Source of the DNA: Frigoriglobus tundricola
GTDB lineage: Bacteria; Planctomycetota; Planctomycetia; Gemmatales; Gemmataceae
Length of the DNA stretch: 64,000 nucleotides
Assembly (NCBI RefSeq): GCF_013128195.2
Contig: NZ_CP053452.2
Location: forward strand, 6,696,001-6,760,000
Reading direction: 5' to 3'
Position numbers and translations under genes: made by a program. Numbering within the stretch: the stretch's first letter is position 1; each line of letters starts with the position of its first letter. The notes beneath the pieces are model-generated. The model was not told where the DNA came from and did not search any database. It saw only the letters and a program-made list of their open reading frames with translations. Shown here one piece after another: positions 1,766 through 47,031 of the stretch.

Positions 1766-1855
1766 GCCGAACGATGAAGCTCACCGGCCGCGCACGCCGC
1801 GATCGGTGCTGCAAACAACGCATGTGCAGCGGTCCGGTGCAGCGTGGGGTTCGGC
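1766..1855 (-). other. attC site A (90 bp)
   Basis: Integron cassette recombination site, read on the minus strand. R'' is GCCGAAC (1849-1855) and R' is GTTCGGC (1766-1772). The L boxes GCTGCACCGG and CCGGTGAGC pair with one unpaired G. It closes the cassette carrying the gene at 1863-2327 and is the last complete attC before the IS66 insertion. Confidence 0.85.
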
Positions 1856-1862
1856 CTCGGGC

Positions 1863-2327
1863 CTACGGGGCAGCCGGTACCGCGCGGCCCTCTTGATCAT
1901 GTCCCAGACAGAAACGTGCTTGCCCCCGCAGGAAGCCCACGCCGGTCGCCAGCTCGGTGAGGTCGCCGCGGTTCCGCGGATGCTCGAACCAACCGACTAC
2001 CCGCCCGCCTCGCACGAACACCACGAGGACAACCCCTTCGTTGCCCTCGATACTCGTCCGCTCCACCTCGTCCCAGCCGAACCCCAGCGTCTGGTTGACG
2101 TATTCGTGTGGGGTGTACGGATGGAAGAAGTACACTCGCTCCCAATCCGACGGGCCGAATTGGTCGAAGTCCACGACCGCCGGCGCGCTCTCCACCTGCG
2201 CCCCCACGCGCTGAGAGCGCAACTCTGCGATGGCGGCCGACCAAACAGCCGACCCGACCGCGTGTGCCAACCACATGAGGAGCGCCCCCATGAAAACCTC
2301 CAACAGACGGTGTGCGTTCCTTCGCAT
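1863..2327 (-). CDS. Cassette membrane-anchored hypothetical protein
   Basis: A 154-residue protein with an N-terminal hydrophobic segment (about residues 9-32, LLEVFMGALLMWLAHAVG) that should act as a signal anchor, followed by a soluble domain with WERVYFFHPYTPHEYVN and GWFEHPRNRG. The start is the ATG just after attC core GTTCGGC and a GAAGGGC ribosome site, which fixes it against longer frames running back into attC B. The stop lies 7 bp before attC A, as expected for a cassette gene. Family not recognised. Confidence 0.7.
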   Translation of the reverse strand: MRRNAHRLLEVFMGALLMWLAHAVGSAVWSAAIAELRSQRVGAQVESAPAVVDFDQFGPSDWERVYFFHPYTPHEYVNQTLGFGWDEVERTSIEGNEGVVLVVFVRGGRVVGWFEHPRNRGDLTELATGVGFLRGQARFCLGHDQEGRAVPAAP

Positions 2328-2344
2328 GCCGACGCCCTTCAACG

Positions 2345-2434
2345 GCCGAACGATCCAGCTCACCGGCCGCGCACGCCGCGACCGGAGCGGGAAACAACGC
2401 ATGTGCGGCGGTCCGGTGCAGCGCGGGGTTCGGC
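2345..2434 (-). other. attC site B (90 bp)
   Basis: R'' GCCGAAC (2428-2434), R' GTTCGGC (2345-2351), and the paired L boxes with the extra G. It closes the cassette carrying the gene at 2469-2945. Confidence 0.85.
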
Positions 2435-2468
2435 CCGGTGTGGAATACCGGGAAGCGACACTCCGCCG

Positions 2469-2945
2469 TCACTCCCACCACCCCGGTTCGGAGGGTTGGG
2501 AATGGCTGGGCCGCTCCGGGCGCTGCCGGCAGCTCTGGTCAATGTTGGGACTGGGCTCTTCCCCCAACCACTCCCCATCTTCGCCGTACAAGCACGCCGC
2601 GTATGAGCCGAAGAACTCGTCGTAGGTGCCGCCGTCCGTGGTGATCACACTGACATCCTGCAACGCAGCCAAGCGTTGCTGGAACGTACACAGCCTCGCT
2701 ACCGGGGCCAACTCGCGAGCGGCGGTGACGTACTCCAACAGTGCCCCTCGGACAGCTTGGTTCGCGTCGGCGGTACACAACCCGAACTCTTTAGGGAACT
2801 GGTATTCGGCCTCCGGCAAAAGGAACGTGCTGAAGACGGCGGCGGCCATCGCATCGCGGCATTCAGTGTCGTAAATCTCTCCATTGCGCGTGCCGATCGC
2901 TTGAAGGCGTTGGAGCAGTTGTAGCAGAAGTTCCTTCACGACCAC
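2469..2945 (-). CDS. Cassette hypothetical protein, probable GTG start
   Basis: A soluble protein of about 158 residues with a leucine-rich N-terminal helix (KELLLQLLQRLQAIG), a central alpha-helical part and a Ser/Pro-rich tail. No ATG lies between attC C and the conserved region. Two in-frame GTG codons (2945 and 2939) follow the GAGGG of the leader, so a GTG start is likely; I chose the upstream one. No family recognised. It is followed by attC B. Confidence 0.6.
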   Translation of the reverse strand: MVVKELLLQLLQRLQAIGTRNGEIYDTECRDAMAAAVFSTFLLPEAEYQFPKEFGLCTADANQAVRGALLEYVTAARELAPVARLCTFQQRLAALQDVSVITTDGGTYDEFFGSYAACLYGEDGEWLGEEPSPNIDQSCRQRPERPSHSQPSEPGWWE

Positions 2946-2958
2946 GCGCCCTCTTCTT

Positions 2959-3071
2959 GCCGAACGAATAAGCTCACCGGCCCGGCCGCGACTCCAGCGG
3001 CGACAACGACAAGCAGGCAAGCAACGAGAAACAAGTTACGTCGCCGGGTCCGGTGCAGCGGCGGGTTCGGC
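2959..3071 (-). other. attC site C (113 bp, long form)
   Basis: Same R and L boxes as the 90-bp sites but with a longer apical part. R'' is at 3065-3071 and R' at 2959-2965. The SUFU gene upstream reads through R'' and L'' and stops inside the site, at 3036. Confidence 0.85.
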
Positions 3072-3725
3072 GTCTTGGCGATCCAACTCGGTGACCATCA
3101 GGGGATTGCTCCGCCGATGCCCCTCGATGACCTGCTCGCACGTCGCCGCTTTGCTCTTGAGCCGCTCAAGTTCATTGGCAGTGATTCCGAACGCCTGGAT
3201 GAATTCGACGCGGCCGTGTGGAGTGTCGATCGGAGCCAGTGCCGGATCAAGCGCGAATGCCAGCCCGACGAGATCGGTGGGGTAGTCAACCCGGATAGGA
3301 CCGTTGGCCGGTATCCAGTGATACGGCTCGAACCAACGCCCGGACTTGAAGACGTACCGGGCGAGATTGTTGAGCAGGTTGAGTACCCAATTCGGCTCTT
3401 CGGTTGGGGGCAGTGGAGTGGCTAATCGGAACGTCATCTCGAAACCGAACTTGCTGCACTCCGCGCCCACGCTCTCTTCATCGTAGTAGAGCGATGAATA
3501 CCCATAAGTGCAGAAATGCAGATGAGGCTTCCCACCGCTCTCACACTCATAGGCGCTGATGCCATCAAGCGGGTCGGGACCACCAAGAATGTACTTGATG
3601 AGGCTGCCCCAGTGCCGCGGCTCCTGCTCTCCGTATACCTCTCGGAGTCGAGCATCGATGGCGTCCCAGCCGGGTGCGGCGTCGTCGCTTTCGCCATAAC
3701 GCCGCTTGTACTCGGCGATGTCCAT
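3036..3725 (-). CDS. SUFU (suppressor of fused) domain protein
   Basis: A 229-residue protein with the SUFU signature: DPLDGISAYE (51-60), PHLHFCTYGYSSLY (67-80) and the FGFEMTFRL strand (93-101). Bacterial SUFU proteins are known, from comparative genomics, as immunity proteins of polymorphic-toxin systems. No toxin gene is adjacent, so here it would be an orphan immunity gene carried by a cassette. The start is the ATG at 3725 after GGAAGGGC in the cassette leader. The last nine residues (EPAAAPDPAT) are encoded by attC C itself. Confidence 0.88.
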   Translation of the reverse strand: MDIAEYKRRYGESDDAAPGWDAIDARLREVYGEQEPRHWGSLIKYILGGPDPLDGISAYECESGGKPHLHFCTYGYSSLYYDEESVGAECSKFGFEMTFRLATPLPPTEEPNWVLNLLNNLARYVFKSGRWFEPYHWIPANGPIRVDYPTDLVGLAFALDPALAPIDTPHGRVEFIQAFGITANELERLKSKAATCEQVIEGHRRSNPLMVTELDRQDAEPAAAPDPAT

Positions 3726-3742
3726 CGGTATGCCCTTCCGCC

Positions 3743-3832
3743 GCCGAACGATGAAGCTCACCGGCCGCGGACGCCGCGATCCGGTCGGGAAACCAGCTAT
3801 GTGCCGCGGTCCGGTGCAGCGCCGGGTTCGGC
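3743..3832 (-). other. attC site D (90 bp)
   Basis: R'' GCCGAAC (3826-3832), R' GTTCGGC (3743-3749), L boxes as in the other sites. It separates the SUFU cassette from the cassette of the 3841-4314 gene. Confidence 0.85.
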
Positions 3833-3840
3833 CTCTGCGC

Positions 3841-4314
3841 TTACCAAGGGGCAATGAAGGCCCGCACCCATGACTGCTCGACCGGCTGGAACTGCCCCTC
3901 GAACCACTCCGGACCGAAGTCCGGCGGGGACGCTTCCTCCGAGGGCCAGCAGCCGGTGAACTCCCGCCGATACCCTGCGTCGAGCGCGGCCGCCCACTGC
4001 GACTCGGGGACGCGGACCATGTACATGGTGCCCGACACGAATGCGGCGAGCCGAGCGGACCCCGGATCGACCAACGCCGGTGTGACGCTCACGAGGACGC
4101 ATGCCGAATCGGGTAGCCCCTCGCCGAGCTTGTCCCAGACGCGGGAGATCACCTCCGGGTGGTGGCCGAGGCCGACCGCGATCGTCTCCTCATCACCGTA
4201 TCCGGCACGGATGAACTGCTCCGTACTCATCATGAGCGGCAGCGTGTCCACAACCCGTTGCCGAAGGAAGAGGGACACGCGGCGGGTCGCGTCATCGCCG
4301 AGCGCCAGTTCCAC
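3841..4314 (-). CDS. Cassette hypothetical protein, GTG start
   Basis: A 157-residue soluble protein. The GTG start at 4314 follows the leader AGAGGGC. Middle motifs include GYGDEETIAVGLGHHPE and a Trp/Phe-rich C-terminal stretch (DFGPEWFEGQF). No family recognised. The size, acidic character and single-gene cassette setting fit an immunity-type protein, but that is inference only. The stop is 8 bp before attC D. Confidence 0.65.
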   Translation of the reverse strand: MELALGDDATRRVSLFLRQRVVDTLPLMMSTEQFIRAGYGDEETIAVGLGHHPEVISRVWDKLGEGLPDSACVLVSVTPALVDPGSARLAAFVSGTMYMVRVPESQWAAALDAGYRREFTGCWPSEEASPPDFGPEWFEGQFQPVEQSWVRAFIAPW

Positions 4315-4330
4315 CCTGCAGCCCTCTGGT

Positions 4331-4443
4331 GCCGAACGAAATAGCTCACCGGCCCGGCCGCGACACTCGTGTGCGACAACGACGACCGGCGAGCAACGGG
4401 AAACAAGCTACGTGGCCGGGTCCGGTGCAGCGACGGGTTCGGC
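4331..4443 (-). other. attC site E (113 bp, long form)
   Basis: Long-form attC with R'' at 4437-4443 and R' at 4331-4337. The gene upstream terminates inside it, at 4408. Confidence 0.85.
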
Positions 4444-5112
4444 AGGCTTTGCTGCTCGTCGCAGCCGCTGCCTGATCTGCTTGGCAGCCGACTGCTCCAG
4501 CCCCGCCCAACTGCCCCGGAACGGCGGCACGCCCGCGACCACCGAAAGCGAGCCGGCGTCCCCGACGCCCCGGAGGGCGCAGACTGCGGATGCCCGCTGT
4601 ACCTCGGTCAGCTCCAGCGCCAGCAATCGGTGAAGAAACTCTCGTACCTGCTGCTCCACCGCCGGGGTGATGGCCGGCCTACCCTTGAACGATAGCAGGT
4701 GGTTCAACCCGTCAGCCAACCGAACGGCCAACCGCACGTCAGACGCGGGCCGTTCGACGACCGGACCGACGATGGCGAGGAGGGCGGACACGCTCTCCGG
4801 CGTCCGGACCTCCTCCAGCACGCCGATGCAGAACTCGTCTGCCCCACCCGCCTCTCCAGCCATCCGGACCAGACCCGCGTACCCGCCCTCAAGGAGCCGG
4901 CAGACGGTGTCCGCCCACCGGCCGAACGGGACGACGAGTTGGCGGCCCTCGCGGCCGGAGTCCGACCAGCCGTGTTCGCCCTTGAGGGTGCGGAGGAGCG
5001 CGGCGTCGGCCGCGTCGCCGATGGCGGCCACCTTCAGGAGGTGTTCCACCTCCAACGAGTTGTCCGCCGCCTTCCGCGACAGCGTCCGCCGCTGGGCCGC
5101 CGTCAACCCCAT
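4408..5112 (-). CDS. Cassette hypothetical protein, helical repeat-like
   Basis: A 234-residue protein, predominantly helical and Leu/Ala-rich, resembling HEAT-like repeat proteins in composition (for example VSALLAIVGPVVERPASDVRLAVRLADGL), though no family is assigned with confidence. The ATG at 5112 follows AAGAGGGC in the leader. The C-terminus AEPVAAPDPAT is encoded by attC E, as in the SUFU cassette. Confidence 0.68.
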   Translation of the reverse strand: MGLTAAQRRTLSRKAADNSLEVEHLLKVAAIGDAADAALLRTLKGEHGWSDSGREGRQLVVPFGRWADTVCRLLEGGYAGLVRMAGEAGGADEFCIGVLEEVRTPESVSALLAIVGPVVERPASDVRLAVRLADGLNHLLSFKGRPAITPAVEQQVREFLHRLLALELTEVQRASAVCALRGVGDAGSLSVVAGVPPFRGSWAGLEQSAAKQIRQRLRRAAKPAEPVAAPDPAT

Positions 5113-5130
5113 CCGCGAAGCCCTCTTGTG

Positions 5131-5220
5131 GCCGAACGAATAAGCTCACCGGCCGCGCACGCCGCGCTCGGTGCTAGAAACAACGCATGTGCGGCGGTCC
5201 GGTGCAGCGGCGGGTTCGGC
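5131..5220 (-). other. attC site F (90 bp)
   Basis: R'' GCCGAAC (5214-5220), R' GTTCGGC (5131-5137). It is the attC of gene-less cassette copy 1 and is nearly identical to attC J. Confidence 0.85.
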
Positions 5221-5549
5221 CTCCTCGCCGGCCGAGGCGGCTCTGCACCGCCCGCGCCACCGACGCGCATCCGCAGAGCGGGAGCGACACGCCCCGGTGC
5301 GTGCGGCCCACCGCAACGCTCAGTCGGGGCCGCGGGGGCACCGGCCACCTCCCCACCGACCCGCATCCGCTGTGCCCGTGGCACCCACGCGGCGCCGCGG
5401 AGCCGACGCGACGCGCCGAGGTGTGTGCGGCCGCCACATTTTCTCACCGGGCCGCGGGGTCCGCAACCCCCTCGTGCTCCGCGCCCGAGGCCACCGACGC
5501 GAGCGGGCCAGGGGTCTCCGCTCGGGGCGACGCGAAGGAGCTGTCCCCC
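5131..5549 (-). repeat. Gene-less integron cassette, copy 1 of 5
   Basis: A 419-bp unit comprising attC F plus about 330 bp without a credible gene. Inside it a block of about 75 bp is duplicated (5263-5338 and 5388-5459 share GTGYGTGCGGCC and GGGCCGCGGGG). It is almost identical to copy 4 (6968-7386), differing in a handful of bases around 5434-5446. Short minus-strand frames are very Arg/Pro-rich with low-complexity composition. Confidence 0.8.
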
Positions 5550-5639
5550 GCCGAACGTAAAAGCTCACCGGCCGCGCACAACGCGAGCGGTGCTGAAAAC
5601 AACCGATGTGCAGCGGTCCGGTGCAGCGTGTGGTTCGGC
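5550..5639 (-). other. attC site G (90 bp)
   Basis: R'' GCCGAAC (5633-5639), R' GTTCGGC (5550-5556). It closes the membrane-protein cassette 5665-6120. Confidence 0.85.
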
Positions 5640-5664
5640 TCGGCTGCCGTTGCGCCTGCCGACA

Positions 5665-6120
5665 TTACCCCCACAACATCGCAACAGTCGACAACAGGAA
5701 CAACAGCAGGCACAACTTAAAAAGCCAGACAATTGGGAATCGGAAGATGACTGGCCCGCTACGCTCCCATTCTGTGGGTGAAAGGAGTGTCTCGCGCTCA
5801 ATGACCCCCGTTGGCCACGCAACCACCGCCGCGCCCTCCGCGTCGTCGGTCGAGTCCGATAGGTAGTTGGGCAAGAACGAACCGGCCGCTGCCAGCGGGG
5901 CAAGCAGGATGATAGCCCACAGCATGTAGCCGTCGGAAGATAACTCAATATTCGCGACGACAGCTACAGCCAGTACGAAGGAGAAGCCGACCAACACTGG
6001 CGAGCGAAAAACGGCTCCAGCAAGAGCGAAGCCCACGATCCATACAGCCGAACATAAGAACATGCAGGCGAGGGTCTCGACAATCCCTCCCCACCCTGCG
6101 TGTCCAAAGAGCGGTGGCAT
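5665..6120 (-). CDS. Cassette integral membrane protein
   Basis: A 151-residue protein with about four hydrophobic segments: near the N-terminus (ETLACMFLCSAVWIVGFALAG), LVGFSFVLAVAVVAN, MLWAIILLAPLAAAG, and the C-terminal LFKLCLLLFLLSTVAMLWG. The start is well fixed: ATG at 6120, six bases after a perfect AGGAGG that directly follows attC core GTTCGGC. It lies between two copies of the gene-less cassette. Function unknown. Confidence 0.72.
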   Translation of the reverse strand: MPPLFGHAGWGGIVETLACMFLCSAVWIVGFALAGAVFRSPVLVGFSFVLAVAVVANIELSSDGYMLWAIILLAPLAAAGSFLPNYLSDSTDDAEGAAVVAWPTGVIERETLLSPTEWERSGPVIFRFPIVWLFKLCLLLFLLSTVAMLWG

Positions 6121-6131
6121 TAAGGCCTCCT

Positions 6132-6221
6132 GCCGAACGATGAAGCTCACCGGCCGCGCGCGCCACGATGGGTGCTCGAAACCACGCATGTGCAGCGGTC
6201 CGGTGCAGCGGCGGGTTCGGC
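6132..6221 (-). other. attC site H (90 bp)
   Basis: R'' GCCGAAC (6215-6221), R' GTTCGGC (6132-6138). attC of gene-less cassette copy 2. Confidence 0.85.
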
Positions 6222-6550
6222 CTCCTCGCCGGCCTCGGTGGTTCCGCACCGCCCGCGCCACCGTGGCGGATCGGCGGAGCGGATGCGACACGCCCCGGTG
6301 CGTGCGGCCCACCGCAACGCTCAGTCGGGGCCGCGGGGACGGCCGCCACCTCACCCCCGACCCGCATCCGCTGTGCCCGCGGCACCCACGCGGCGCCGCG
6401 GAGCCGACGCGATGCGCCGAGGTGTGTGCGGCCGCCGCATTCTCTGTCCGGGCCGCGGGGTCCGCAACCCCCTCGTGCTCCGCGCCCGAGGCCACCGACG
6501 CGAGCGGGCCAGGGGTCTCCGCTCGGGGCGACGCGGAGGAGCTGTCCCCC
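6132..6550 (-). repeat. Gene-less integron cassette, copy 2 of 5
   Basis: attC H plus a body homologous to copy 1, with scattered substitutions. It contains the same internal duplication and the same lack of a credible gene. Confidence 0.8.
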
Positions 6551-6640
6551 GCCGAACGATGGAGCTCACCGGCCGCGCACGCCGCGATGGGTGCGGGAAA
6601 CCACGCATGTGCAGCGGTCCGGTGCAGCGGCGGGTTCGGC
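6551..6640 (-). other. attC site I (90 bp)
   Basis: R'' GCCGAAC (6634-6640), R' GTTCGGC (6551-6557). attC of gene-less cassette copy 3. Confidence 0.85.
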
Positions 6641-6967
6641 CTCCTCGCCGGCCTCGGCGGTTCCGCACCGCCCGCGCCACCGACGCGCTCCGCGGGGCGG
6701 GAGCGACACGCCCCGGTGCGTGCGGCCCACCGCAACGCTCAGTCGGGGCCGCGGGGACGCCCGCCACCTCACCCCCGACCCGCATCCGCTGTGCCCGCGG
6801 CACACACGCGGCGCCGCGGAGCGGACGCGCCGCGCCGAGGTGTGTGCGGCCGCCGCATTCTCTGTCCGGGCCGCGGGGTCCGCAACCCCCTCGTGCTCCG
6901 CGCCCCGGGCCACCGACGCGGGCGGACCAGGGGCTTCGCTCGGGGTGGCGGGGAGGAGCTGTCCACC
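6551..6967 (-). repeat. Gene-less integron cassette, copy 3 of 5
   Basis: A 417-bp unit homologous to the other copies. It is the most diverged at its minus-strand 5' end (6900-6967). Confidence 0.8.
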
Positions 6968-7057
6968 GCCGAACGAATAAGCTCACCGGCCGCGCACGCC
7001 GCGCTCGGTGCTAGAAACAACGCATGTGCGGCGGTCCGGTGCAGCGGCGGGTTCGGC
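6968..7057 (-). other. attC site J (90 bp)
   Basis: R'' GCCGAAC (7051-7057), R' GTTCGGC (6968-6974). attC of gene-less cassette copy 4; matches attC F. Confidence 0.85.
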
Positions 7058-7386
7058 CTCCTCGCCGGCCGAGGCGGCTCTGCACCGCCCGCGCCACCGA
7101 CGCGCATCCGCAGAGCGGGAGCGACACGCCCCGGTGCGTGCGGCCCACCGCAACGCTCAGTCGGGGCCGCGGGGGCACCGGCCACCTCCCCACCGACCCG
7201 CATCCGCTGTGCCCGTGGCACCCACGCGGCGCCGCGGAGCCGACGCGACGCGCCGAGGTGTGTGCGGCCGCCGCATTCTCTGTCCGGGCCGCGGGGTCCG
7301 CAACCCCCTCGTGCTCCGCGCCCGAGGCCACCGACGCGAGCGGGCCAGGGGTCTCCGCTCGGGGCGACGCGAAGGAGCTGTCCCCC
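6968..7386 (-). repeat. Gene-less integron cassette, copy 4 of 5
   Basis: A 419-bp unit nearly identical to copy 1 (5131-5549), although two other copies and a gene cassette lie between them. That is the pattern expected from cassette excision and re-insertion rather than simple tandem duplication. Confidence 0.8.
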
Positions 7387-7476
7387 GCCGAACGATGAAG
7401 CTCACCGGCCGCGCACGCCGCGATGGGTGCGGGAAACAACCGATGTGCGGCGGTCCGGTGCAGCGGCGGGTTCGGC
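7387..7476 (-). other. attC site K (90 bp)
   Basis: R'' GCCGAAC (7470-7476), R' GTTCGGC (7387-7393). attC of gene-less cassette copy 5. Confidence 0.85.
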
Positions 7477-7806
7477 CTCCTCGCCGGCTTCGGCGGTTCC
7501 GCGCCGCCCGCGCCACCGACGCGCATCCGCGGAGCGGGAGCGACACGTCGCCGTGTGTGCGGCCCACCGCTTATCTCCATCGTGGCCGCGGGGACGCCCG
7601 CCACCTCACTCCCGACCCGCATCCGCTGTGCCCGCGGCACCCACGCGGTGTCGCGGAGCGGACGCGATGCGCCGAGGTGTGTGCGGCCGCCGCATTCTCG
7701 GTCCGGGCCGCGGGGTCCGCAACCCCCTCGTGCCCCGCGCCCCGGGCCACCGACGCGAGCGGGCCAGGGGTCTCCGCTCGGGGCGGCGCGGAGGAGCTGT
7801 GACACC
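7387..7806 (-). repeat. Gene-less integron cassette, copy 5 of 5
   Basis: A 420-bp unit, the copy closest to intI. It differs from the others near 7555-7580, where the CAACGCTCAGTC element is replaced. Confidence 0.8.
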
Positions 7807-7896
7807 GCCGAACGAAATAGCTCACCGGCCGCGCACGCTGCGATCCGGTCACCCAACTATGCAGGTGCTGCGGTTCGGTGCAGCGCCAGGTTTGGC
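7807..7896 (-). other. attC site L (90 bp, variant R'')
   Basis: R'' is GCCAAAC (7890-7896) rather than GCCGAAC, which fits the classical RYYYAAC consensus. R' is GTTCGGC (7807-7813). L boxes are less perfect than in the other sites. It closes the cassette of gene 7920-8363. Confidence 0.75.
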
Positions 7897-7919
7897 TCGT
7901 GGCATCGGCCGATTGTGGC

Positions 7920-8363
7920 TCAGCGCGCGAGCGCGAACCGCCACTCCTCCCAGATCGAGTCCGACCGGAAATGTATGCCCGATACGACACCGCCGGGTCC
8001 AAAGGTGACGATCAGATCACGACTATCGTCGTCATCGAAGTCCACCTCCGCCCACGCGACCTGGTCAGCCGGCGGGAAATCGGTGAAATCCCAGTCGAAG
8101 TAGTGGCCAAATTTGCGGCCGTCGTGCGTCCGCCCGTCCGCGTATAGTCGCGGGTTGTCCCAGCCCCGCTCCCGACTGAGGTACGCAGCACGAATCCGCG
8201 CCACGGCTTCCTCTTGTGACATGCCGACGCGGAGTTCGGCGCACACAACGCCCAGTGAGCCGGGCAACTCCGGCCGACGCGATCCGAGGATACCGACCGC
8301 GGCAATCATGGCCAACGCAGTAACCAACCAAGCCCTCGGACGCTCCCATACCGATTTGCGCAC
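7920..8363 (-). CDS. Cassette membrane-anchored protein, BamE/SmpA-like motif
   Basis: A 147-residue protein with an N-terminal membrane segment (LVTALAMIAAVGIL, about residues 13-26). An outer segment then contains LRVGMSQEEAVARIRAAY, similar to the helix pair at the start of BamE/SmpA-type domains, followed by a beta-rich part (DDDDSRDLIVTFGPGGVVSG). The GTG start at 8363 sits six bases after a perfect AGGAGG next to attC M. The BamE resemblance is short and only suggestive. Confidence 0.65.
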   Translation of the reverse strand: MRKSVWERPRAWLVTALAMIAAVGILGSRRPELPGSLGVVCAELRVGMSQEEAVARIRAAYLSRERGWDNPRLYADGRTHDGRKFGHYFDWDFTDFPPADQVAWAEVDFDDDDSRDLIVTFGPGGVVSGIHFRSDSIWEEWRFALAR

Positions 8364-8378
8364 GCACCACCTCCTGTG

Positions 8379-8468
8379 GCCGAACGATCAAGCTCACCGG
8401 CCGCGCCCCACGCGCTCGGTGCCACAAACAAGCTATGTGCGGCGGTCCGGTGCAGCGCCCGGTTCGGC
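8379..8468 (-). other. attC site M (90 bp), first cassette
   Basis: R'' GCCGAAC (8462-8468), R' GTTCGGC (8379-8385). It closes the cassette nearest attI. Confidence 0.85.
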
Positions 8469-9190: not shown

Positions 9191-10183
9191 TCACATCGCG
9201 TCCAGCGGGCTGGTCACCCCGCGCCCGCCTCGGTTCAGCACGTGCGTGTAGATCATCGTCGTCTCCACGCTCTCGTGCCCGAGTAGCTCCTGCACCGTGC
9301 GGATGTCCGTGCCCGCCTCGATCAGGTGCGTCGCGAAACTGTGACGCAGGGTGTGCGCGGTGGCCGGCTTCTTCACCCCCGCCGCACGCACCGCCGCCGT
9401 CACCGCCCGGCTCACCGCCGACTCGTGGTAGTGGTGCCGGCGCTCCGCCCCGGAGCGCGGGTCCACCGACCGCCGGGACGCCGGGAACACGTACTGCCAC
9501 GCCCATTCCGCCGCCGCCGCCGGGTACTTCACCGCCACCGCCGACGGCAGGTGCACCCGACCGAACCCGGCCGCCAGGTCCGCGGCGTGCAGCGCCCGCG
9601 CCGCGGCCAACTGGTCCCGGAGCGCCGGCGCCACCGCCGCCGGCAGCACCGTCACCCGGTCCTTGTTCCCCTTCCCCTCCCGGATCGTAATCTGGTTCAG
9701 CCCGAAGTCAATGTCTTTCACCCGCAACCGCAAACACTCCATCAGCCGCGCGCCCGTTCCGTACAGCGCCCGGCCGATCAACCCGTTCACCCCCTCCAGC
9801 CGCCCCAGCACCGCCCGCACCTCCTCGCGCGTCAGCACCACCGGCAGCCGCTTCGGCCGGTTCGCCCGGACCACCCGCAGTTGGTCCAGCGGGCGGTCCA
9901 GCACCGCGCCGTACAGGAACAGCAGCGCGCACAGCGCCTGGTTCTGCGTCGAGGCCGCCACGTTCCGCACCACCGCCAGGTGCGTCAGGAACGCGTTCAC
10001 CTCCCGCTCGGCCATAGAACTCGGGTGGCGGATGCCGTGGTACCGGATGAACCGCTCGGCCCACTCGGCGTACGCGTCCTCGGTGCGGATGCTGTAGTGC
10101 CGCACCCGGCACGCGTGGCGGAGCCGGTCGAGCAGCTTGGGCGGCGGGGGCGGCGGGAGCGGCGGGGGCGGCGGGAGCGACAT
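9191..10183 (-). CDS. intI: Integron integrase (tyrosine recombinase)
   Basis: Site-specific recombinase that inserts and excises gene cassettes by attI x attC and attC x attC recombination. The 330-residue protein has a proline-rich N-terminus (4-15), a SAM-like core-binding domain (about 16-105) and a tyrosine-recombinase catalytic domain. Catalytic residues visible are R146 (GTGARLME), the lysine of the EGKGNKDRV strand, H277/R280 ([11 protein letters not shown]), H303 ([10 protein letters not shown]) and nucleophile Y312 ([13 protein letters not shown]). The insertion [10 protein letters not shown]...WAWQYVFPA...DPRSG...RRHH (about 211-252) is the IntI-specific extra domain that contacts the attC extrahelical bases, and it separates this from phage or XerCD enzymes. 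It reads in the same direction as the cassettes. The frame is intact. Confidence 0.96.
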
Positions 10184-10299
10184 GCTGTGGCCCGGAATGG
10201 ATCTGGCAATATGTTCACGTGGATAAGATGCCAGTTGGCGCCCGGTGCGTCAAGATCCGACCGGTCGCACCCGCCGGTGCCGCTCGTCGGGTGCCCCAC

Positions 10300-10416
10300 G
10301 TGCAGAGTCGCACACAAAAATGTAACATATGTTTATATGCCAACGTTTTATGGTGTAATATATTTTGCGAATTGGATGTGCGGTACACTATGGGGCGACA
10401 CGGAGGAGCCGAAGAC
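10300..10416. promoter_or_regulatory. AT-rich divergent control region upstream of intI
   Basis: A sharply AT-rich stretch (10313-10380) in a GC-rich window, between intI on the minus strand and the small gene at 10417 on the plus strand. It holds an ATATG-rich palindromic patch (ACATATGT, 10325-10332). It also holds half-sites resembling the LexA-like operators at 19276-19337: CACAC/TGTAA around 10311-10325 and GTGTAA at 10353-10358. Promoter function is inferred from position and composition. Confidence 0.4.
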
Positions 10417-10644
10417 GTGACCCGATCCGTCCGGCGGACCTATCGCCTCTCGGCCAACGCCCTGTGTCACGACGTGTGGTTCAACCGCCGGGGCGAACTG
10501 GTCGTCGAACGGGAGGCCGCGCCGGCGCCGTCCGAGGCCGAATCGCTCCTGTACCGCCGGGCCGAGGCGCTCGTGGCCGAATGCGGCGGGGAAGGGTGCC
10601 CGATCGATTCATCGGACGTGCAGGTCGCCACGGACGCGCCGTGA
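10417..10644 (+). CDS. Small conserved-looking hypothetical protein
   Basis: A 75-residue protein. The GTG start at 10417 lies ten bases after GGAGG. The sequence starts TRSVRRTYRLSANALCHDVWFNRRGELVVER, has a negatively charged middle and two Cys residues near the end (ECGGEGCP). It is transcribed away from intI across the AT-rich region. It is not followed by an attC, so it is probably not a cassette gene. Function unknown. Confidence 0.55.
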   Translation: MTRSVRRTYRLSANALCHDVWFNRRGELVVEREAAPAPSEAESLLYRRAEALVAECGGEGCPIDSSDVQVATDAP

Positions 10645-10984
10645 TCTCGTGCCCGAACCCGGCACTCGGGTCGCGGGTCGGGCCGATCGAAAATCGGAAG
10701 CCAGAGGTGCGTAAAGTCGAAGACATGAACGGGCCGCGGACCCGCGCGAAGAACGGCGCGGCGCCGCGGGACGTGCCGGACCCGGCAGACCCGGCCCGCG
10801 GCACCGCGACTCCGGCGCCGGGGGCGAAACCGCATGTAACCGGGTGCAACGGTGGCGGGCGCCGCGAGCGGGCCGGGACCGGTCGGCGAGAGCCGGACCG
10901 AGAAATGGGCACCGTGTTGATCCGGCCCGCGATACCGGCGCTCACCGGCGCTCGCCGGCGCTCGCCGGCACTCAAGAGCCGCGT

Positions 10985-11203
10985 TCCGAGCGGCGTTACG
11001 GGACCCGGACCTCCCCAAGCGCGCCACCCGGAGGCGGCGTCCTGGGTCGTGTTGGCGAACCGCACCGGCTTGCCGCCCTTGAGGGGGTTCGGCACCCGCA
11101 CCGCCAGGGCGTACCGGCCGGCCTTCACCCCGCTCACGTCCAGGGTCTCGGCCCACACCCGCGGCTCCGCTCCGGGTAGCAGCCCGGTCAACTTCCCCGT
11201 GCC
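10985..11203 (-). pseudogene. 3' fragment of a DUF4832 gene copy
   Basis: About 70 codons homologous to the C-terminus of the intact gene at 13463-14836 (PRVWAETLDVSGVKAGRYALAVRVPNPLKGG). The upstream part is missing. The fragment stops exactly where attC N begins, at a GGCGAAC that in the intact gene continues as coding sequence (near 13670). The region 10645-10984 left of it holds no recognisable gene, only a short CTCGCCGG tandem repeat near 10940-10975. Confidence 0.75.
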
Positions 11204-11316
11204 GGCGAACGATGCAGCTCACCGGCCCGGCCGAGACACCAGTAGCACACACGGACGACCGGTGAGCAACGGGAAACAAGCTACGCGGCCGGGTCCGGTG
11301 CCGCGTGGGGTTCGGC
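11204..11316 (-). other. attC site N (113 bp), fused to pseudogene
   Basis: Long-form attC. R'' GCCGAAC is at 11310-11316. R' is GTTCGCC (11204-11210), contributed by the DUF4832 gene fragment rather than by a neighbouring cassette. The L boxes are intact. Confidence 0.8.
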
Positions 11317-11712
11317 GCGCCTTTGCGCCGACGGTGGCAACTCGGACCCGCAGAACCTCGTCCGACTCCAGTCCACCAAGATGCACACCGAGCCATCGCC
11401 GTCTCGGAAGCATCGTGACACAAACTGGGCGGAGAGAAATATGTCCGGGTGTTCGGTCAGGTACTCCCGCCAGTCCGCCTCCCAGTCGCCGAACCGCCAG
11501 GCGTCATCATTTGCCAGGAACCGTCCCCCGAATACGGTCGGGACGGAAGCGATACCGGGGGCAACGCCGAAGAAACTCGCTTCCCGTTGCTCGTCGGCCA
11601 ACTCCGCGACCAGTCGCTGGTTGGACAGCGTCAGGCCGGCCCACCATCGCCGCACCGCATCGCACGCCGCGTCGGGAACACCGTCGAGCAAGGAAGGTGG
11701 GAGTTCCTCCAA
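11281..11712 (-). CDS. Cassette hypothetical protein, probable TTG start
   Basis: A protein of about 143 residues. No ATG or GTG lies at the right place, but TTG at 11712 follows GGAGGGC with normal spacing, so a TTG start is proposed. The body is Trp/Phe-rich and acidic (RFGDWEADWREYLTEHPDIF, SVCILVDWSRTRFC). It ends AEPHAAPDPAA inside attC N. No family recognised; the composition resembles small immunity proteins. Confidence 0.55.
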   Translation of the reverse strand: MEELPPSLLDGVPDAACDAVRRWWAGLTLSNQRLVAELADEQREASFFGVAPGIASVPTVFGGRFLANDDAWRFGDWEADWREYLTEHPDIFLSAQFVSRCFRDGDGSVCILVDWSRTRFCGSELPPSAQRRAEPHAAPDPAA

Positions 11713-11741
11713 CTGCGCCCTCCACGGCTCGGGGTTTCCGC

Positions 11742-11831
11742 GCCGAGCGAAATAGCTCACCGGCCGCGCACGGAGCGACCGGTGAGGGAAACAACCGATT
11801 TGCCGTGGTCCGGTGCAGCGGCCTGTTCGGC
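11742..11831 (-). other. attC site O (90 bp, variant R')
   Basis: R'' GCCGAAC (11825-11831) and variant R' GCTCGGC (11742-11748), so the core GTT is changed to GCT. This should weaken recombination at this junction. Confidence 0.75.
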
Positions 11832-11885
11832 CTCTTGGCACCCCGTTAGTGACCACTCCTCGAATGGTGCGGCTGGAGTAAGAAC

Positions 11886-12347
11886 CTAGTCCTTATCTTT
11901 CGCGCGCTTGAATTTAGGTGATTTCACGTCTTTGCCTTGGACGAGAGACGTGAGCGACAGTTCCTCATTTGTGACTGCCACCTTCGATTTGAGCGTCCTC
12001 CTCTTCCCGTCCTCCTCGATCGTGAGTTCGATTTCCGTGTCCTTGACGAACGAGTATTTCCCCGTGACGCTGCTCCCCTTCTCCGAGCCGGGGACGCGGT
12101 TCTTGAGTTCGGGGATGTCGCCCTCCGTGTACGTGACCGTTCCGTCCTTCTTGAACTCAACGAATACCTTTCGAGTGAACACTTCGTCCTTCACCCCCTC
12201 GCGGTTGCTCTTGATCGTGAACGTCGATTCTCCCTGCCAACGGCCGAGGATCATCTCGGCGGGTTTGGGGTTTGGGTCGGCAGCTGCGAGGAGACATGAG
12301 GAAACGACGAACGTTACGCTGGAGAGAATGAAACGACTCAGGAACAT
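11886..12347 (-). CDS. Secreted lipocalin-like protein (TIGR03066-like)
   Basis: A 153-residue protein with a clear signal peptide (residues 1-25, FILSSVTFVVSSCLLAAA) and a beta-rich domain starting ILGRWQGESTFTIKS, with alternating KDGTVTYTEGD and KYSFVKDTEIELTIEEDGK strands. This pattern matches Gemmata paralogous families (TIGR03066/03067) of putative lipocalin-like fold. The start is the ATG at 12347 after GGAGG. It lies between attC P and attC O, but the distance to P (42 bp) is longer than in other cassettes. Confidence 0.7.
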   Translation of the reverse strand: MFLSRFILSSVTFVVSSCLLAAADPNPKPAEMILGRWQGESTFTIKSNREGVKDEVFTRKVFVEFKKDGTVTYTEGDIPELKNRVPGSEKGSSVTGKYSFVKDTEIELTIEEDGKRRTLKSKVAVTNEELSLTSLVQGKDVKSPKFKRAKDKD

Positions 12348-12389
12348 AGCGACCTCCACACTTGGACACTCATTACTCCGCCTTCTTGT

Positions 12390-12479
12390 ACCGAGCGAAA
12401 TAGCTCACCGGCCGCGCACGGAGCGACCGGTGCGGGAAACAATCTATGTGCGGCGGTCCGGTGCAGCGCGGGGTTCGGC
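12390..12479 (-). other. attC site P (90 bp, variant R')
   Basis: R'' GCCGAAC (12473-12479) and degenerate R' GCTCGGT (12390-12396). The upstream gene stops inside it, at 12444. Confidence 0.75.
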
Positions 12480-12785
12480 GTCTTGGCCACCCACCGGCAG
12501 CAACCCGTGGATGGCCCGCAGTTCGTGCCACGCTACCACCCGGACGGACTCCTCGTCGGTCACCAAGAAGCCGGGGGCGTACCCGAACCCCGATCCCGGC
12601 CGCGGCGGGTTGGTCGGCAGTCGCTCGGCCTCGTAGTCGAAGTACCAGCCCGCTGACACCCGTCGGCCCGGCGCCAGCCGCCACCTGTACCCCTTGACCG
12701 GAGGTATGCCGGCGATGTGATGCCGCGCAATGGCGAGTACCAACTCTGGAACTGGCGAGCCACCCATCCCATCTACCTCTGGCAC
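12444..12785 (-). CDS. Cassette hypothetical protein 2 of a two-gene cassette
   Basis: A soluble protein of about 113 residues. The start is GTG at 12785, with TTG at 12788 as an alternative. Central region: YRWRLAPGRRVSAGWYFDYEAERL. It begins within ten bases of the stop of the gene upstream, so both are probably translated from one cassette message. The C-terminus (AEPRAAPDRRT) is encoded by attC P. No family recognised. Confidence 0.6.
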   Translation of the reverse strand: MPEVDGMGGSPVPELVLAIARHHIAGIPPVKGYRWRLAPGRRVSAGWYFDYEAERLPTNPPRPGSGFGYAPGFLVTDEESVRVVAWHELRAIHGLLPVGGQDAEPRAAPDRRT

Positions 12786-12794
12786 CAAAGATTG

Positions 12795-13103
12795 TTATTC
12801 GGCGTCTGGCCCGCCCCGCAAAGACGCCACCGCTTCCAGCCACTCCGGGTTGGCAAGCGAGAGCGCGATCTGCCGCGGAAACCCCAGGTGCTTGTTGCTC
12901 CAACGATAGCCGCCCACGTCGGTGGCGTGAAGGTGGACGTGCCACGCTTGCGGATCGTATCCGAGATCGACTCCGGCGATGGGGACCAAGAACGCGTGCC
13001 CATGACGAATGCGGTCGGCGCGGGTCCATTCCCGGGGCATGCCCATCGGCAGCCATTGCCCGAGCAGAGCGTGCATCGCGCACTGTGCTGGCGTCAACCG
13101 CAC
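12795..13103 (-). CDS. Cassette hypothetical protein 1 of a two-gene cassette
   Basis: A 102-residue protein. The GTG start at 13103 lies just after GGCGAAGG in the leader next to the attI-like core at 13118. Distinctive segment: DPQAWHVHLHATDVGGYRWSNKHLGFPRQIAL. Being next to attI, it would be the first cassette of the second array. Function unknown. Confidence 0.62.
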   Translation of the reverse strand: MRLTPAQCAMHALLGQWLPMGMPREWTRADRIRHGHAFLVPIAGVDLGYDPQAWHVHLHATDVGGYRWSNKHLGFPRQIALSLANPEWLEAVASLRGGPDAE

Positions 13104-13117
13104 CCTTCGCCTCTCTC

Positions 13118-13150
13118 GCCGAACCTCGTATTGGTTCCCCGGGCCGTTCC
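13118..13150 (-). other. attI-like site of a second array
   Basis: Core GTTCGGC (13118-13124) flanked by CGTATTGGTT on the plus strand. It matches the flank of the proven attI position (GTATTAG at 9067-9073) and the one at 62605. No L-box hairpin partner is present, so it is not an attC. No intI is visible next to it. From 13151 to 13462 I see no gene, only a short minus-strand frame without a start. Confidence 0.5.
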
Positions 13151-13462
13151 GCGTTCATTTGCCTCGCGGGGCAACCGAACACGTGGGAGCGGACCGGAAA
13201 CCCTTCGTCATAACTCCCGCCAGGATAACCGATCCGGCAGAATGTTCAAGCACACATCGGTTCCGCGTTTATGTGCTTCGGGCGGCGAAGGTCCACGATT
13301 CTGTGAGGTTGCTCGGCCGCGACACCGGGTGCGGTCGGAGTTCCAGAAGGCGCTGTTCAGCTTCGAGGGGGGCCATGTCATCCCCCCAGGCGACATCACT
13401 CTGTCCGACGAGGTTGGGTCCGGCACCGCTCGCCGGCAGCGCGAGCCGCGTCCCGAGCGGCG

Positions 13463-14836
13463 TTACGGGACCCGGACCTCCCCGAGCGCGAGCCACCCGG
13501 CGGCGGCCTGGGTCGTGTTGGCGAACCGCACCGGCTTGCCGCCCTTGAGGGGGTTCGGCACCCGCACCGCCAGGGCGTACCGGCCGGCCCTCACCCCGCT
13601 CACGTCCAGGGTCTCGGCCCACACCCGCGGCTTCGCTCCGGGCAGCAGCCCGGTCAGCTTCCCCGTGCCGGCGAACGCCTTCACCGCCGCGCCGTCGGCC
13701 AGGAGCCCCCACTCCGGCTTCCAGTCGTAATAGAACGGGGCCACCCCGCGGTTCTCCAGCTCCAGGCGCACACTCAACTGGCCCTTCTGAACGTCCCCGA
13801 TCGTCACCGCCGGGGCGTGGAACTCGTACCCCATCCGCCGCACCTCCTCCTCGGCCCGGCGCACGCGCTCGGCGCCCTGCTTCTTCGCGAACATGCCGCT
13901 GTCCATCAGCCAGGTGACGTGGGTCGCCTCCACGCACGTGCGAAAGTTCTGGATCTGCACGTGGCCCGGTGCCCGATCGAACACCCGGCCCCAGGCCTCG
14001 GGGCGGATCTCCCCGCCGATGGGGCACGTCTTCCACTTGTTCTCGGCGTCCGGGCCGGCCGCCTTCAGGGCGGCCATGTAGAACCAGTCGTCCGCCCTGC
14101 GGCCGGTGTCCAACGTGGCCCAGGCGAACGAGTCGTCGTGGTAGCCGAACCGGCGGTCGGCGTTGGCGGCCCGCTTGTCGTCCTTGGCCCCCACCGGGTA
14201 CCGCAGCAGCACCGGCGTGACCTTGAACGCCGCTTCGTAAGCGTCCAGTACCTCGATCTGCACCGCCGTGCTGGCGAACAGCTCCTCACGCGGGTACGTG
14301 TGCCACTCGCCCCAGAGGCCGAGCAGCCCGGCCGTGACGAACCCGACCCGCGGGTCGCCGTCGTACCGCTTGCCGAGCGCGGCGATGAAGCCCGTCAGGG
14401 ACTTCCGCAGGTTCTTGTCCGCGTAGTCGGGGGTCTCGATGGCGCCGCCGTCGCTCTCGGCGGAGCGCCACTTCGTCACCTTGAGCCCGCCCTTGAGCAG
14501 GAAGGCGGGGACGGCGCCGGTCTTGTTGGGGTACTCCAGGAAGATGCGGAAGACGGCCTGGTGCCCGCGCCCGGCGATGTCGTCGAGGGCCCGGTCGAGG
14601 GGCCGCCAGTCGAACGCGTCGGCCCCCGTGACGAGGGCCGAGTACGGCAGGTAGGTGAACTCCAGGCTGTGCGGGAAGGCGGTCCGCACGTCGGCCTGGT
14701 AGGGCACCAGCCCTTTCAGCGGGTTGTCCACCGGGGCCGGGGCGTACTCGAGCGGCTGGCGCGGGTCGGCGGCCCCCGGCCCGGCCCCGACGGCCGCCAC
14801 GAGTGCCAGGGCCGCCACCGTGTACGTTCGGACCAT
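13463..14836 (-). CDS. DUF4832 domain, glycosidase-like secreted protein
   Basis: A 457-residue protein with a signal peptide (MVRTYTVAALALVAAVGAG), then a TIM-barrel-like region typical of DUF4874/DUF4832 proteins: NPLKGLVPY near the mature N-terminus, a WGEWHT motif (about residue 175) and a C-terminal beta-sandwich (from about residue 355). The family is associated with carbohydrate-active loci, but its reaction is not established. The ATG at 14836 follows GGAGGGGG. The gene sits between an attI-like region and a degenerate attC and has donated the 3' fragment found at 10985-11203. Confidence 0.8.
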   Translation of the reverse strand: MVRTYTVAALALVAAVGAGPGAADPRQPLEYAPAPVDNPLKGLVPYQADVRTAFPHSLEFTYLPYSALVTGADAFDWRPLDRALDDIAGRGHQAVFRIFLEYPNKTGAVPAFLLKGGLKVTKWRSAESDGGAIETPDYADKNLRKSLTGFIAALGKRYDGDPRVGFVTAGLLGLWGEWHTYPREELFASTAVQIEVLDAYEAAFKVTPVLLRYPVGAKDDKRAANADRRFGYHDDSFAWATLDTGRRADDWFYMAALKAAGPDAENKWKTCPIGGEIRPEAWGRVFDRAPGHVQIQNFRTCVEATHVTWLMDSGMFAKKQGAERVRRAEEEVRRMGYEFHAPAVTIGDVQKGQLSVRLELENRGVAPFYYDWKPEWGLLADGAAVKAFAGTGKLTGLLPGAKPRVWAETLDVSGVRAGRYALAVRVPNPLKGGKPVRFANTTQAAAGWLALGEVRVP

Positions 14837-14863
14837 CGCATCCCCCTCCCACACGTTCCGGGC

Positions 14864-24198: not shown

Positions 24199-24310
24199 GC
24201 GCCGAGAGCCCTGCCATGTGAGGAATAGACGGAACCCGCCGGCGCGCTCGAGGAATCCCTCTCGGTGCGGCCCCGAAAGCTCTCTACCGGAGGTCGGAAC
24301 CGATCGCTCG

Positions 24311-25564
24311 TCAGGGGTAGGAGATTTGGCACTTCGGCAAGGCTTTGCGCAACGCCGCCACGGCGCCCGGGGTCACTTGTGTGCCTTGCAGGTTGAGCGT
24401 GCCGAGCTTCTCGAGCGCGGCCAGTTCCTTCACGCCCGCGTTCGTCACCGCCGTGTTTCGCAGGTCGAGTTCGGTGAGCGCCTTCAGGGCGGCCAGGTGC
24501 TTCGCACCCGCGTTCGTTACCTTTGTGTCACTCAGCTTCAGCCGGGCCAGGTTCTGGAGCGGGGCCAGGTGCTTCAGGCCCGCGCCCGTCACCGCCGTGT
24601 TTCTCAGGTCGAGTGCGGTCAGGGTCTTGTGGACGGCCAGTTCCTTTAGGCCCGCGTCCGTCACCTTCGAGGCCTCCAGGTTGAGGTCGGTGAGGTTCGG
24701 GAGCGGGGCCAGCTCCTTCAGCCCCCTGTCCGTCACCGGCGTGAAGTCGAGGCCGAGCGAAGTGAGCTTCGGGAGCGCGGCCAGTTCCATTAGCCCCGCG
24801 TCCGTTACCGCCGTGTTTCTCAGGTCGAGTCGGGTGAGGTTCTGGAACGGGGCGAGGCCCCTCAGCCCCGCGTCCGTCACCTTCGCTTCGCTCAAGTTGA
24901 GGTGAGTTAATTTCGTGAGCGTGGTCAGGTTCCGCGCGCCCGCGCCCGTCACCGCCGTGCCACTCAGGCTGAGCCAACTGAGGTTCTCGAGTGGAGCCAG
25001 TTCCAGTAGCCCCGTGTCCGTGACTTTCGAGCCGGACAACCACAGCGTGTTCAGGTTCTTGAAGGCGGCCACTTGCTTCAGTCCCGCGTCCGTCACCGGC
25101 GCGTGATCCAGGTTGAGGTGGGTGAGCTGCGGGAGCGGGGCCAGGTCCTTTAGCCCCGCGCCGGTCACCTTCGTGGCGTACAGGCTCAGCTTGTTGAGGT
25201 TCTTGAGCGGGGCCAGGTGCTTCAGCCCCGCGTCCGTCACCTTCGTGCCGGACAGGTTGAGGTCGGTGAGGTTCCGGAACGGGTCCAGCTCCTTCAGTCC
25301 CGCGTCCGTCACCGCCGTGCTCTCCAGGTTGAGCCAGACGAGTTGCTTGAGTGGGGCCAGTTTCTTGAGCGCCGCGTCCGTCACCTGCGGGCTGGTCATT
25401 TCGACTCGGACGACTGGTTTCCCGGGCGCCCTTTCGTCTCGGTAGACCTTCCCGCCGAGCTTTTGCACGAACGCGGCGGCCTTGTCCTCGGCGTCGTCGG
25501 CGCGGACGGGCGAGCACAGGCACAGCCCCGGCAACGTCAGGGCGAGCGCGACCATCCTGAGCAT
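24311..25564 (-). CDS. Secreted leucine-rich repeat protein 1
   Basis: A 417-residue protein with a signal peptide (MLRMVALALTLPGLCLCSPVRA) followed by about 14 repeats of a 24-residue LRR unit (consensus VTDAGLKELAPLKNLTxLxLxxTx). The repeats form one unbroken solenoid to the C-terminus, and no other domain is seen. The ATG at 25564 follows GGGAGAAG. It is paralogous to the next gene, with a near-identical signal peptide and upstream region. Role unknown; planctomycete LRR proteins of this type are abundant and mostly uncharacterised. It runs against the phage-like genes, suggesting later insertion. Confidence 0.85.
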   Translation of the reverse strand: MLRMVALALTLPGLCLCSPVRADDAEDKAAAFVQKLGGKVYRDERAPGKPVVRVEMTSPQVTDAALKKLAPLKQLVWLNLESTAVTDAGLKELDPFRNLTDLNLSGTKVTDAGLKHLAPLKNLNKLSLYATKVTGAGLKDLAPLPQLTHLNLDHAPVTDAGLKQVAAFKNLNTLWLSGSKVTDTGLLELAPLENLSWLSLSGTAVTGAGARNLTTLTKLTHLNLSEAKVTDAGLRGLAPFQNLTRLDLRNTAVTDAGLMELAALPKLTSLGLDFTPVTDRGLKELAPLPNLTDLNLEASKVTDAGLKELAVHKTLTALDLRNTAVTGAGLKHLAPLQNLARLKLSDTKVTNAGAKHLAALKALTELDLRNTAVTNAGVKELAALEKLGTLNLQGTQVTPGAVAALRKALPKCQISYP

Positions 25565-25760
25565 CACTTCTCCCGCTGTGCGGCGGAATAACGGATCGTG
25601 CGACGATGTTACCCGGCGGTGCGCGCCGGAGCAACGGACAACGCGAAGCGAGACCATTGCCCCGAGCGCGGGGATCGGCCGAGCGAGCGGCGCACGGCAC
25701 ATCTCGTCCCCGTTGATCTCGTCCCCGCCCGACCCAGGGGCGGGACGAGACGCGCCACAG
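25565..25760. repeat. Duplicated upstream region of LRR gene 1
   Basis: About 195 bp nearly identical to 27186-27380 upstream of LRR gene 2, including the ribosome site, a probable promoter and the 51-bp repeat (copy 4 at 25701-25751). The next 100 bp is more diverged. Confidence 0.7.
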
Positions 25761-25862
25761 GCCCCTGCCATGAGCCGAATAGGCGGAACCCGGCCGCGCA
25801 TTCGAGCCTACCTCGATGCGGACCCGAAGTTCCACCCCGGAGCGGCGGAAACGCCCGGTCGG

Positions 25863-39748: not shown

Positions 39749-39851
39749 GCCGAACGATGGCGCTCACCGGCGCGATGGCCGCTGGGCGTTCGGACGACCG
39801 GTGAGCAACGGGAAGCAACTACGCGGCCGGGTCCGGTGCCGTGGGTGCGGC
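39749..39851 (-). other. attC site R (103 bp)
   Basis: R' GTTCGGC (39749-39755), variant R'' GCCGCAC (39845-39851), with L boxes CACCGG/CCGGTG. The split gene upstream ends inside it, at 39819. Closely related to attC T. Confidence 0.75.
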
Positions 39852-40296
39852 GTCCGGGTTGTGCGCGACGTCCGGAACCTGCGCCGGGGACAGCCGGAAG
39901 AACTCGACCCCGGCCAAGCGGCCCCGCCCCCAGCACACGACGCACCAGTCGGACGCGCCCGACGCGGCGACCAGCCGCACCCGGCCGACCGCGCCACCGG
40001 CGAGCCGGGCCCGCACGCGGCCCAGCAGGCCCGGGGCGGCCAACTGGCGGGCCGCGGCCGTCAGCCCCGCGCCCGCTTCGTCCGACGGCGGGAGCAGCCC
40101 GGTACCGCGTGCCCCCTACGATGTACGAGAGCGTATCATCGCACACCGCGTTGGTGCGCCACGGGTGGAAATGGACCGACGCGGCCCCGTCCCGCACGGC
40201 CATCGCCAGGACCTCGGGCCACGTGACCCAGAACCGGAGCCGGTCGGCGTACAGGTCGGCGACGAACGCCGGGTCGTTGAACCGCGCGTCGCAGTA

Positions 40297-41461: not shown

Positions 41462-41518
41462 TAGTACCCGAGTTCCGGCAGGTACAGGACCGCTTCCGCC
41501 ATCGGTGCGCCCTCTGTG

Positions 41519-41625
41519 GCCGAACGAATAAACTCAGTAGCGGCGGGGCCGAGCGAGCGATGGTCACGCACCCGCACGCGGCCCCGCCGTCTGCTACGGT
41601 GCCTGGGGCGGCGTCTGGGCAGCAG
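41519..41625 (-). other. attC site S (degenerate)
   Basis: R' GTTCGGC at 41519-41525 and a CGGCGGGGCCG/CGGCCCCGCCG stem (41540-41590), but no clear R''. It follows the TIGR03067 gene at 41630. Confidence 0.5.
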
Positions 41626-47015: not shown

Positions 47016-47031
47016 CGGTGCGCCCTCTGTG

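What the first reader, a model, noticed from the sequence alone, without database searches (positions are those of the whole stretch)
11198..11316. Integron-type recombination inside a host gene
The DUF4832 fragment (10985-11203) is identical in layout to the intact gene up to GGCGAAC and then continues as attC N. The breakpoint is exactly at the GAAC/GTTC core where IntI cuts. This looks like IntI recombination at a secondary GTT site in a coding gene, which also created a gene duplication.
Basis: partly seen in the sequence, partly recalled or inferred. Interest (0 to 1): 0.65.

Follow-up and report, generated by a model that had tools for sequence, protein, structure and literature searches.

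The report
Integron scar in duplicated gene fragment
In a planctomycete bacterium, the last site of a small integron array is joined, at the letters where the integron enzyme cuts, to the tail of a broken second copy of a nearby gene; this is most likely an old off-target cut by that enzyme, a known kind of event seen here in nature.

Summary
A decayed 3' piece of the DUF4832 gene (10959-11211) matches the intact gene's tail (13427-13677, 93.7%). It stops at minus-strand C|GTTCGCC, where attC N (11204-11316) ends. The array's top strand is the MINUS strand (fold geometry and cassette gene direction agree), so the joint is at R' (G^TT), the end IntI cuts, not at R''. A full-length intI lies about 1 kb away.

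Best reading: IntI recombined attC N with a GTT (attG-like) site inside DUF4832. Context: 127 attC-like sites in about 20 places but one complete intI, and four other array-end attCs joined to unrelated DNA right after GTT, one at the stop codon of a methionine aminopeptidase gene. Against: a shared CGTTCG also permits microhomology joining; the junction count is retrospective, with exceptions; no empty site was found.

"Which also created a gene duplication" is not shown. No single IntI event gives the present layout: either a copied 2,466-bp circle was reinserted and later trimmed, or a pre-existing second copy was cut by an attC x attG deletion. Off-target IntI recombination is published, so this is a natural member of a known kind.

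The parts
11204..11316 (-). attC N, last attC of a three-cassette block; R' is G|TTCGCC (11210-11204), cut point between 11210 and 11209
   Evidence: R1 62.8 bits (N was in the build set); DNA fold of + strand z -2.71, 1 of 200 shuffles as good; alignment A1
10959..11211 (-). 3' fragment of the DUF4832 gene, pseudogene: about 60 codons in frame, then frameshifted before the old stop
   Evidence: alignment, translations, most differences derived on the fragment side
13463..14854 (-). intact DUF4832 gene, 463 aa; the counterpart of the junction is CGTTCGCC at 13677-13670
   Evidence: PF16116 34.1 bits against cut-off 29.2; full-length homologues at 61-73% identity in the family
11742..11831 (-). 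attC of the second cassette of the block
   Evidence: R1 88.9 bits (build set)
12390..12479 (-). attC of the first cassette of the block
   Evidence: R1 98.9 bits (build set)
11886..12359 (-). cassette gene with an apparent signal peptide (by eye), 5' of attC 11742-11831: fixes array direction
   Evidence: ORF scan; no Pfam match
13118..13311 (-). attI/Pc-like leader that heads the block; ends GAGG|TTCGGC
   Evidence: model R2: 10 matches in own genome at E<=0.01, six of them the build sequences
9191..10183 (-). intI, full-length integron integrase, same strand as the cassettes
   Evidence: TIGR02249 449.7-449.9 bits; Pfam; 2A3V 305.8 bits
1766..8468 (-). cassette array downstream of intI on the same strand, 13 attC sites in the window
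   Evidence: R1 hits

Best explanation
The junction is a scar of an off-target IntI reaction: the R' end of attC N recombined with a G|TTCGCC site inside the DUF4832 coding strand (an attG-like secondary target). Shown: the sequence join, its place at G|TT of R', the orientation, and a full-length intI nearby. Inferred: that IntI made it, and the history. Two histories fit about equally. (a) IntI paired the gene's GTT with attC N, 2,466 bp apart in direct orientation, and a semi-conservatively copied circle [TTCGCC, gene tail, leader, three cassettes, attC N] was reinserted behind attC N, leaving the first gene whole; most of the second unit was later lost from 10959 on. (b) A second full DUF4832 copy once lay between attC N and intI, and an attC N x attG deletion removed its 5' part. 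The remnant then decayed as a pseudogene.
For: Joint at G|TT of R' in the independently established array orientation. The sequence follows the attC up to CGTTCG and the gene from CGTTCG on. IntI is full length and IntI4-like. Own genome: 127 attC-like matches at E<=0.1 in about 20 separate places with one complete intI, so attC blocks away from intI are common here. Among 115 attC with a scoreable 3' end (of 127; 6 not held, 6 with a weak L box), 10 have at most 2 of 4 consensus bases after the core, and 6 of the 10 still carry GTT. Four of those six are array-end sites followed by DNA that does not look like a cassette (1774414, 2467871, 2564588, 5535715). At 5535715 the join is at the stop codon of a type I methionyl aminopeptidase gene. 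The used gene site is joint third of 1,385 positions for R' likeness. Semi-conservative copy-and-paste by IntI is described in PMC8024014 (passages read).
Against: The 6-bp overlap CGTTCG also permits microhomology or slippage joining; 28 of 1,113 runs of at least 6 bp would hit an attC-like core. Four of the ten divergent attC ends do not keep GTT (1433380, 4576068, 8037635, 8374328); 1433380 abuts a repeated IS-like element and two are weak hits. Calling four junctions unrelated DNA is a judgement by eye. None of the 14 other attC blocks compared shows a flank duplication with the break at an attC end. PMC10127599 (passages) reports an attC x oriT deletion that also arose without the integrase, so attC sites can break by other means. 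The other end of the fragment (10959/13427) is not an att site; it lies in a short GCCGGCGAGC repeat.
Confidence: 0.68

Rival explanations
1. Microhomology-mediated or replication-slippage joining without IntI: the attC hairpin base stalled or broke DNA, and CGTTCG in R' paired with CGTTCG in the gene.
For: Six shared bases at the joint and three CGTTCG sites in the gene; attC N folds well as single-stranded DNA; an integrase-independent attC deletion is reported in PMC10127599 (passages), though its break was in the terminal loop.
Against: At most 28 of 1,113 runs of at least 6 bp would place the joint on an attC-like core; four other array ends carry GTT followed by unrelated sequence.
Confidence: 0.2
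2. Plain cassette insertion: a block of three cassettes with its leader entered the GTT site of a second DUF4832 copy, whose 5' part was later lost.
For: Both block ends have G|TT: left GAGG|TTCGGC, right G|TTCGCC.
Against: No 5' piece of a second copy was found in the genome (whose only second own-genome match is the 3' piece); the left flank is the attI-like leader, not gene sequence.
Confidence: 0.08
3. Assembly artefact: the fragment is a false duplication.
For: None seen; reads were not available.
Against: The copies differ by substitutions and indels spread over 250 bases and have different flanks; the contig is 9.83 Mb long.
Confidence: 0.02

Closest known systems
attG recombination (Loot et al. 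2024, Nat Microbiol; paper not held, recalled, and as described in passages of PMC12444791 and PMC12901181)
   Same: attC end joined to non-att DNA at G|TT; IntI as the likely agent; many genomic targets
   Different: there, cassettes insert into E. coli sites in experiments; here a natural planctomycete scar with only the right half of the target kept, beside an intact copy of the gene
Off-target IntI1 inversions on plasmid R388 (PMC10127599, passages read)
   Same: secondary GTT sites inside genes are cut and genes are disrupted
   Different: those were inversions between two GTT sites; here an attC with a GTT in direct orientation
CALIN, clusters of attC without integrase (PMC12444791, passages)
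   Same: three cassettes with attC and no intI inside the block
   Different: intI lies about 1 kb downstream of the block, and the block has its own attI-like leader
Inverted-intI integrons of Treponema (PMC3607928, passages)
   Different: here a further block lies upstream of intI as well

Membership tests
attC site (N) | R''/R' cores of inverted GTT type | tested here: met
   GCCGAAC ... GTTCGCC, alignment A1
attC site (N) | bottom-strand hairpin with extrahelical bases in the L'' half | tested here: met
   + strand fold shows the T bulge and further unpaired bases six pairs on; the second base is C rather than the usual G (the usual base is recalled), and N has a mismatch near the base of its L box
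integron | integron integrase gene | tested here: met
   TIGR02249 over cut-off
integron | attI recombined by this IntI | not testable with these tools
   candidate attI sites seen after intI and in leaders; no activity test
attG-type off-target recombination | junction at G|TT between attC R' and non-att DNA | tested here: met
attG-type off-target recombination | IntI dependence | not testable with these tools
   needs a recombination assay
attG-type off-target recombination | empty target site in a relative | tested here: inconclusive
   18 congeners lack the gene at E<=1e-60; the region upstream of intI has no match in the 20 relatives' loci fetched apart from attC-like repeats
CALIN | two or more attC without a proximal intI | tested here: not met
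   the window block lies about 1 kb upstream of intI

The most novel reading that the evidence does not exclude
The junction has made intI itself cassette-like cargo: intI now lies between two attC sites in direct repeat (attC N upstream, 8379-8468 downstream), in a unit that opens with TTCGCC and the gene tail. IntI could then excise and carry its own gene, so off-target attC x attG events would be a way for chromosomal integrases to move. A second family genome (L155) also has an attC about 140 bp upstream of intI and more downstream, all on one strand.
Probability: 0.1. Interest if true: 0.65.

Novelty: new member of a known kind. Interest (0 to 1): 0.42.

Why it matters
As far as the passages read here show, off-target IntI activity is documented mainly in laboratory plasmids and E. 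coli. A genome with one full-length intI, over a hundred dispersed attC-like sites and several GTT joints to unrelated DNA would be a natural record of that activity, and the pair of intact and cut DUF4832 copies gives an exact target to test.

Tried and rejected
Reading the array on the + strand was considered and rejected: it would put the joint at R'', which IntI does not cut; folds, L-box lengths and cassette genes all favour the minus strand. An Rfam scan of the window gave no family at gathering thresholds and ARAGORN no tRNA. A search for the region upstream of intI in 20 relatives' loci found only attC-like matches. Own-genome searches with 10184-11000 and 12480-13463 found no ancestral flank for either copy, but led to the leader. 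A scan for gene-tail duplications between the two flanks of array blocks listed 16 blocks and compared 15, the window included (L170 was skipped because its right flank is in another locus; L166, L167, L168, L171 and L178 were not in the list). Only the DUF4832 case had a break at an attC end; L176, L177, L180, L182 and L184 gave other short or diverged repeats. The microhomology count used a block in which the last seven bases of attC N were set to the consensus R', and it counted chance core look-alikes, so it is an upper bound. Literature: six searches on integrons and one on attC with pseudogenes listed no report that by its title or abstract start describes this locus or planctomycete attG scars; most subscription papers are not in that library, so this is no proof of absence from print.

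Full report
What was claimed.

What is there. The window is positions 6,696,001-6,760,000 of the larger contig of a 9.86-Mb, two-contig genome. A full-length integron integrase gene lies at 9191-10183, minus strand: TIGR02249 449.7 bits against a cut-off of 265; in the same search all 14 control genomes ring but none passes the cut-off; 305.8 bits to the solved IntI4 2A3V. Model R1, built from 20 window attC sites, finds 25 sites in the window at E below 0.001, all on the minus strand, 20 of them the build set. Thirteen lie left of intI (1766-8468), three right of it (11204-12479), and nine further right (39749-62116).

Direction of the array. On the minus strand the sites read R''-L''-...-L'-R', with L'' one base longer than L'. 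The + strand of attC N and of 4331-4443 folds with a T bulge, six pairs and a further bulge in the L'' half, the layout recalled for attC bottom strands; the second base is C here rather than the usual G. Clear cassette genes are on the minus strand. So R', the cleaved end, is the low-coordinate end. In 20 relatives' intI loci, 13 have an attC at E<=0.01; in 12 of the 13 these include sites downstream of intI on its own strand, as in Treponema (PMC3607928, passages); L163 is the exception with the classical divergent layout. Only L155 has same-strand attC upstream of intI too at that threshold (L154 has one weak match there, E 0.029).

The joint. 10959-11211 aligns with 13427-13677 (93.7%) and includes 36 bases beyond the intact gene's stop. 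The match ends at minus-strand C-G|T-T-C-G-C-C. The attC consensus is CGTTCGGC, so the crossover lies somewhere in six shared bases and G|TT is inside. The fragment keeps the gene's frame for about 60 codons, then indels shift it and it misses the old stop. Against six homologues most differences are derived on the fragment side, with two sites where the intact gene looks derived: the copies have evolved apart as gene and pseudogene. There is no third copy. The gene is accessory: 11 of 95 family genomes, own included, carry it at E<=1e-60, and none of 18 congeners does.

Is it IntI? For: the joint is at R' in the independently established orientation; the gene site is joint third of 1,385 positions for likeness to R'; joining by any run of at least 6 bp would hit an attC-like core in at most 28 of 1,113 cases. 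In the genome, 127 attC-like matches at E<=0.1 lie in about 20 places. Of 115 with a scoreable end, 93 carry GTT; of the 10 with at most two of four consensus bases after the core, 6 carry GTT, and four of these are array ends followed by DNA without a cassette start: 1774414, 2467871, 2564588, 5535715. The 5535715 joint is at the stop codon of a type I methionyl aminopeptidase gene (TIGR00500, 255.9 bits against 171.35; ORF L176 3862-4722). attC N itself has three of four consensus bases and is not among the ten. Against: the four that lack GTT (1433380, 4576068, 8037635, 8374328); the retrospective choice of this test; the six-base overlap; and a published attC deletion independent of the integrase (PMC10127599, passages).

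History. One event cannot give an intact gene plus a 3' remnant with another 3' flank. Either a circle of 2,466 bp, copied from the gene's GTT to attC N, was reinserted behind attC N and then mostly lost, or an older full second copy was cut by an attC N x attG deletion. IntI copy-and-paste is described in PMC8024014 (passages). The data do not choose. The far end, 10959/13427, lies in a GCCGGCGAGC repeat and is no att site. None of the 14 other blocks compared shows a like duplication at an attC end.

A by-product. The block next to DUF4832 is headed by a 194-base leader (13118-13311) ending in G|TTCGGC, with a promoter-like TTGAAC/TATCCT pair (judged by eye). Model R2, built from six such leaders, finds 10 matches in the genome at E<=0.01: the six build sequences and four more. 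One of the four, at window 62604-62762, lies just after an intI relic (62792-62899, 72% over 36 residues), where attI belongs. So attI-like leaders without intI head several dispersed blocks. How they spread is unexplained.

Verdict. It is a natural member of the known class of off-target IntI products.

Noticed in passing
13118-13311 minus; own genome C1 4575169, 4575397, 4916118, 5755331, 8800060, 6758604, and weaker 5757807, 2457535, 8355553: A ~195-bp attI/Pc-like leader heads several dispersed attC blocks that have no intI (model R2).
   Followed up: partly
own genome contig C1, about 20 places: 127 attC-like matches at E<=0.1 scattered over the chromosome with only one complete intI.
   Followed up: partly
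62792-62899 minus: Relic of a second intI (36 C-terminal residues, 72% identical to the intact one), followed by a diverged leader.
   Followed up: partly
L155 9004-9096 and 9235-10194: In another family genome intI begins about 140 bp after an attC, with attC sites on both sides on one strand.
   Followed up: partly
L163 535-2761: This intI locus has the classical divergent layout, unlike the other 12 family loci with attC hits.
   Followed up: no
39797-41545 and 46478-47058: The same cassette twice, about 99% identical over 506 bases; one copy is split by a 1.17-kb IS-like element with an apparent 8-bp target repeat, and the attC sites of the two copies differ in their 3' halves.
   Followed up: no
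5131-7896: Five similar cassettes of about 418 bp, four in tandem, without a clear ORF; related copies lie in the array at 2.46 Mb.
   Followed up: no
24278-27062 and 63471-63986: Repeats with a 72-base period, 24 and 4 register copies.
   Followed up: no
L176 4716-4824: A lone attC joined at the stop codon of a methionyl aminopeptidase gene on the other strand.
   Followed up: partly
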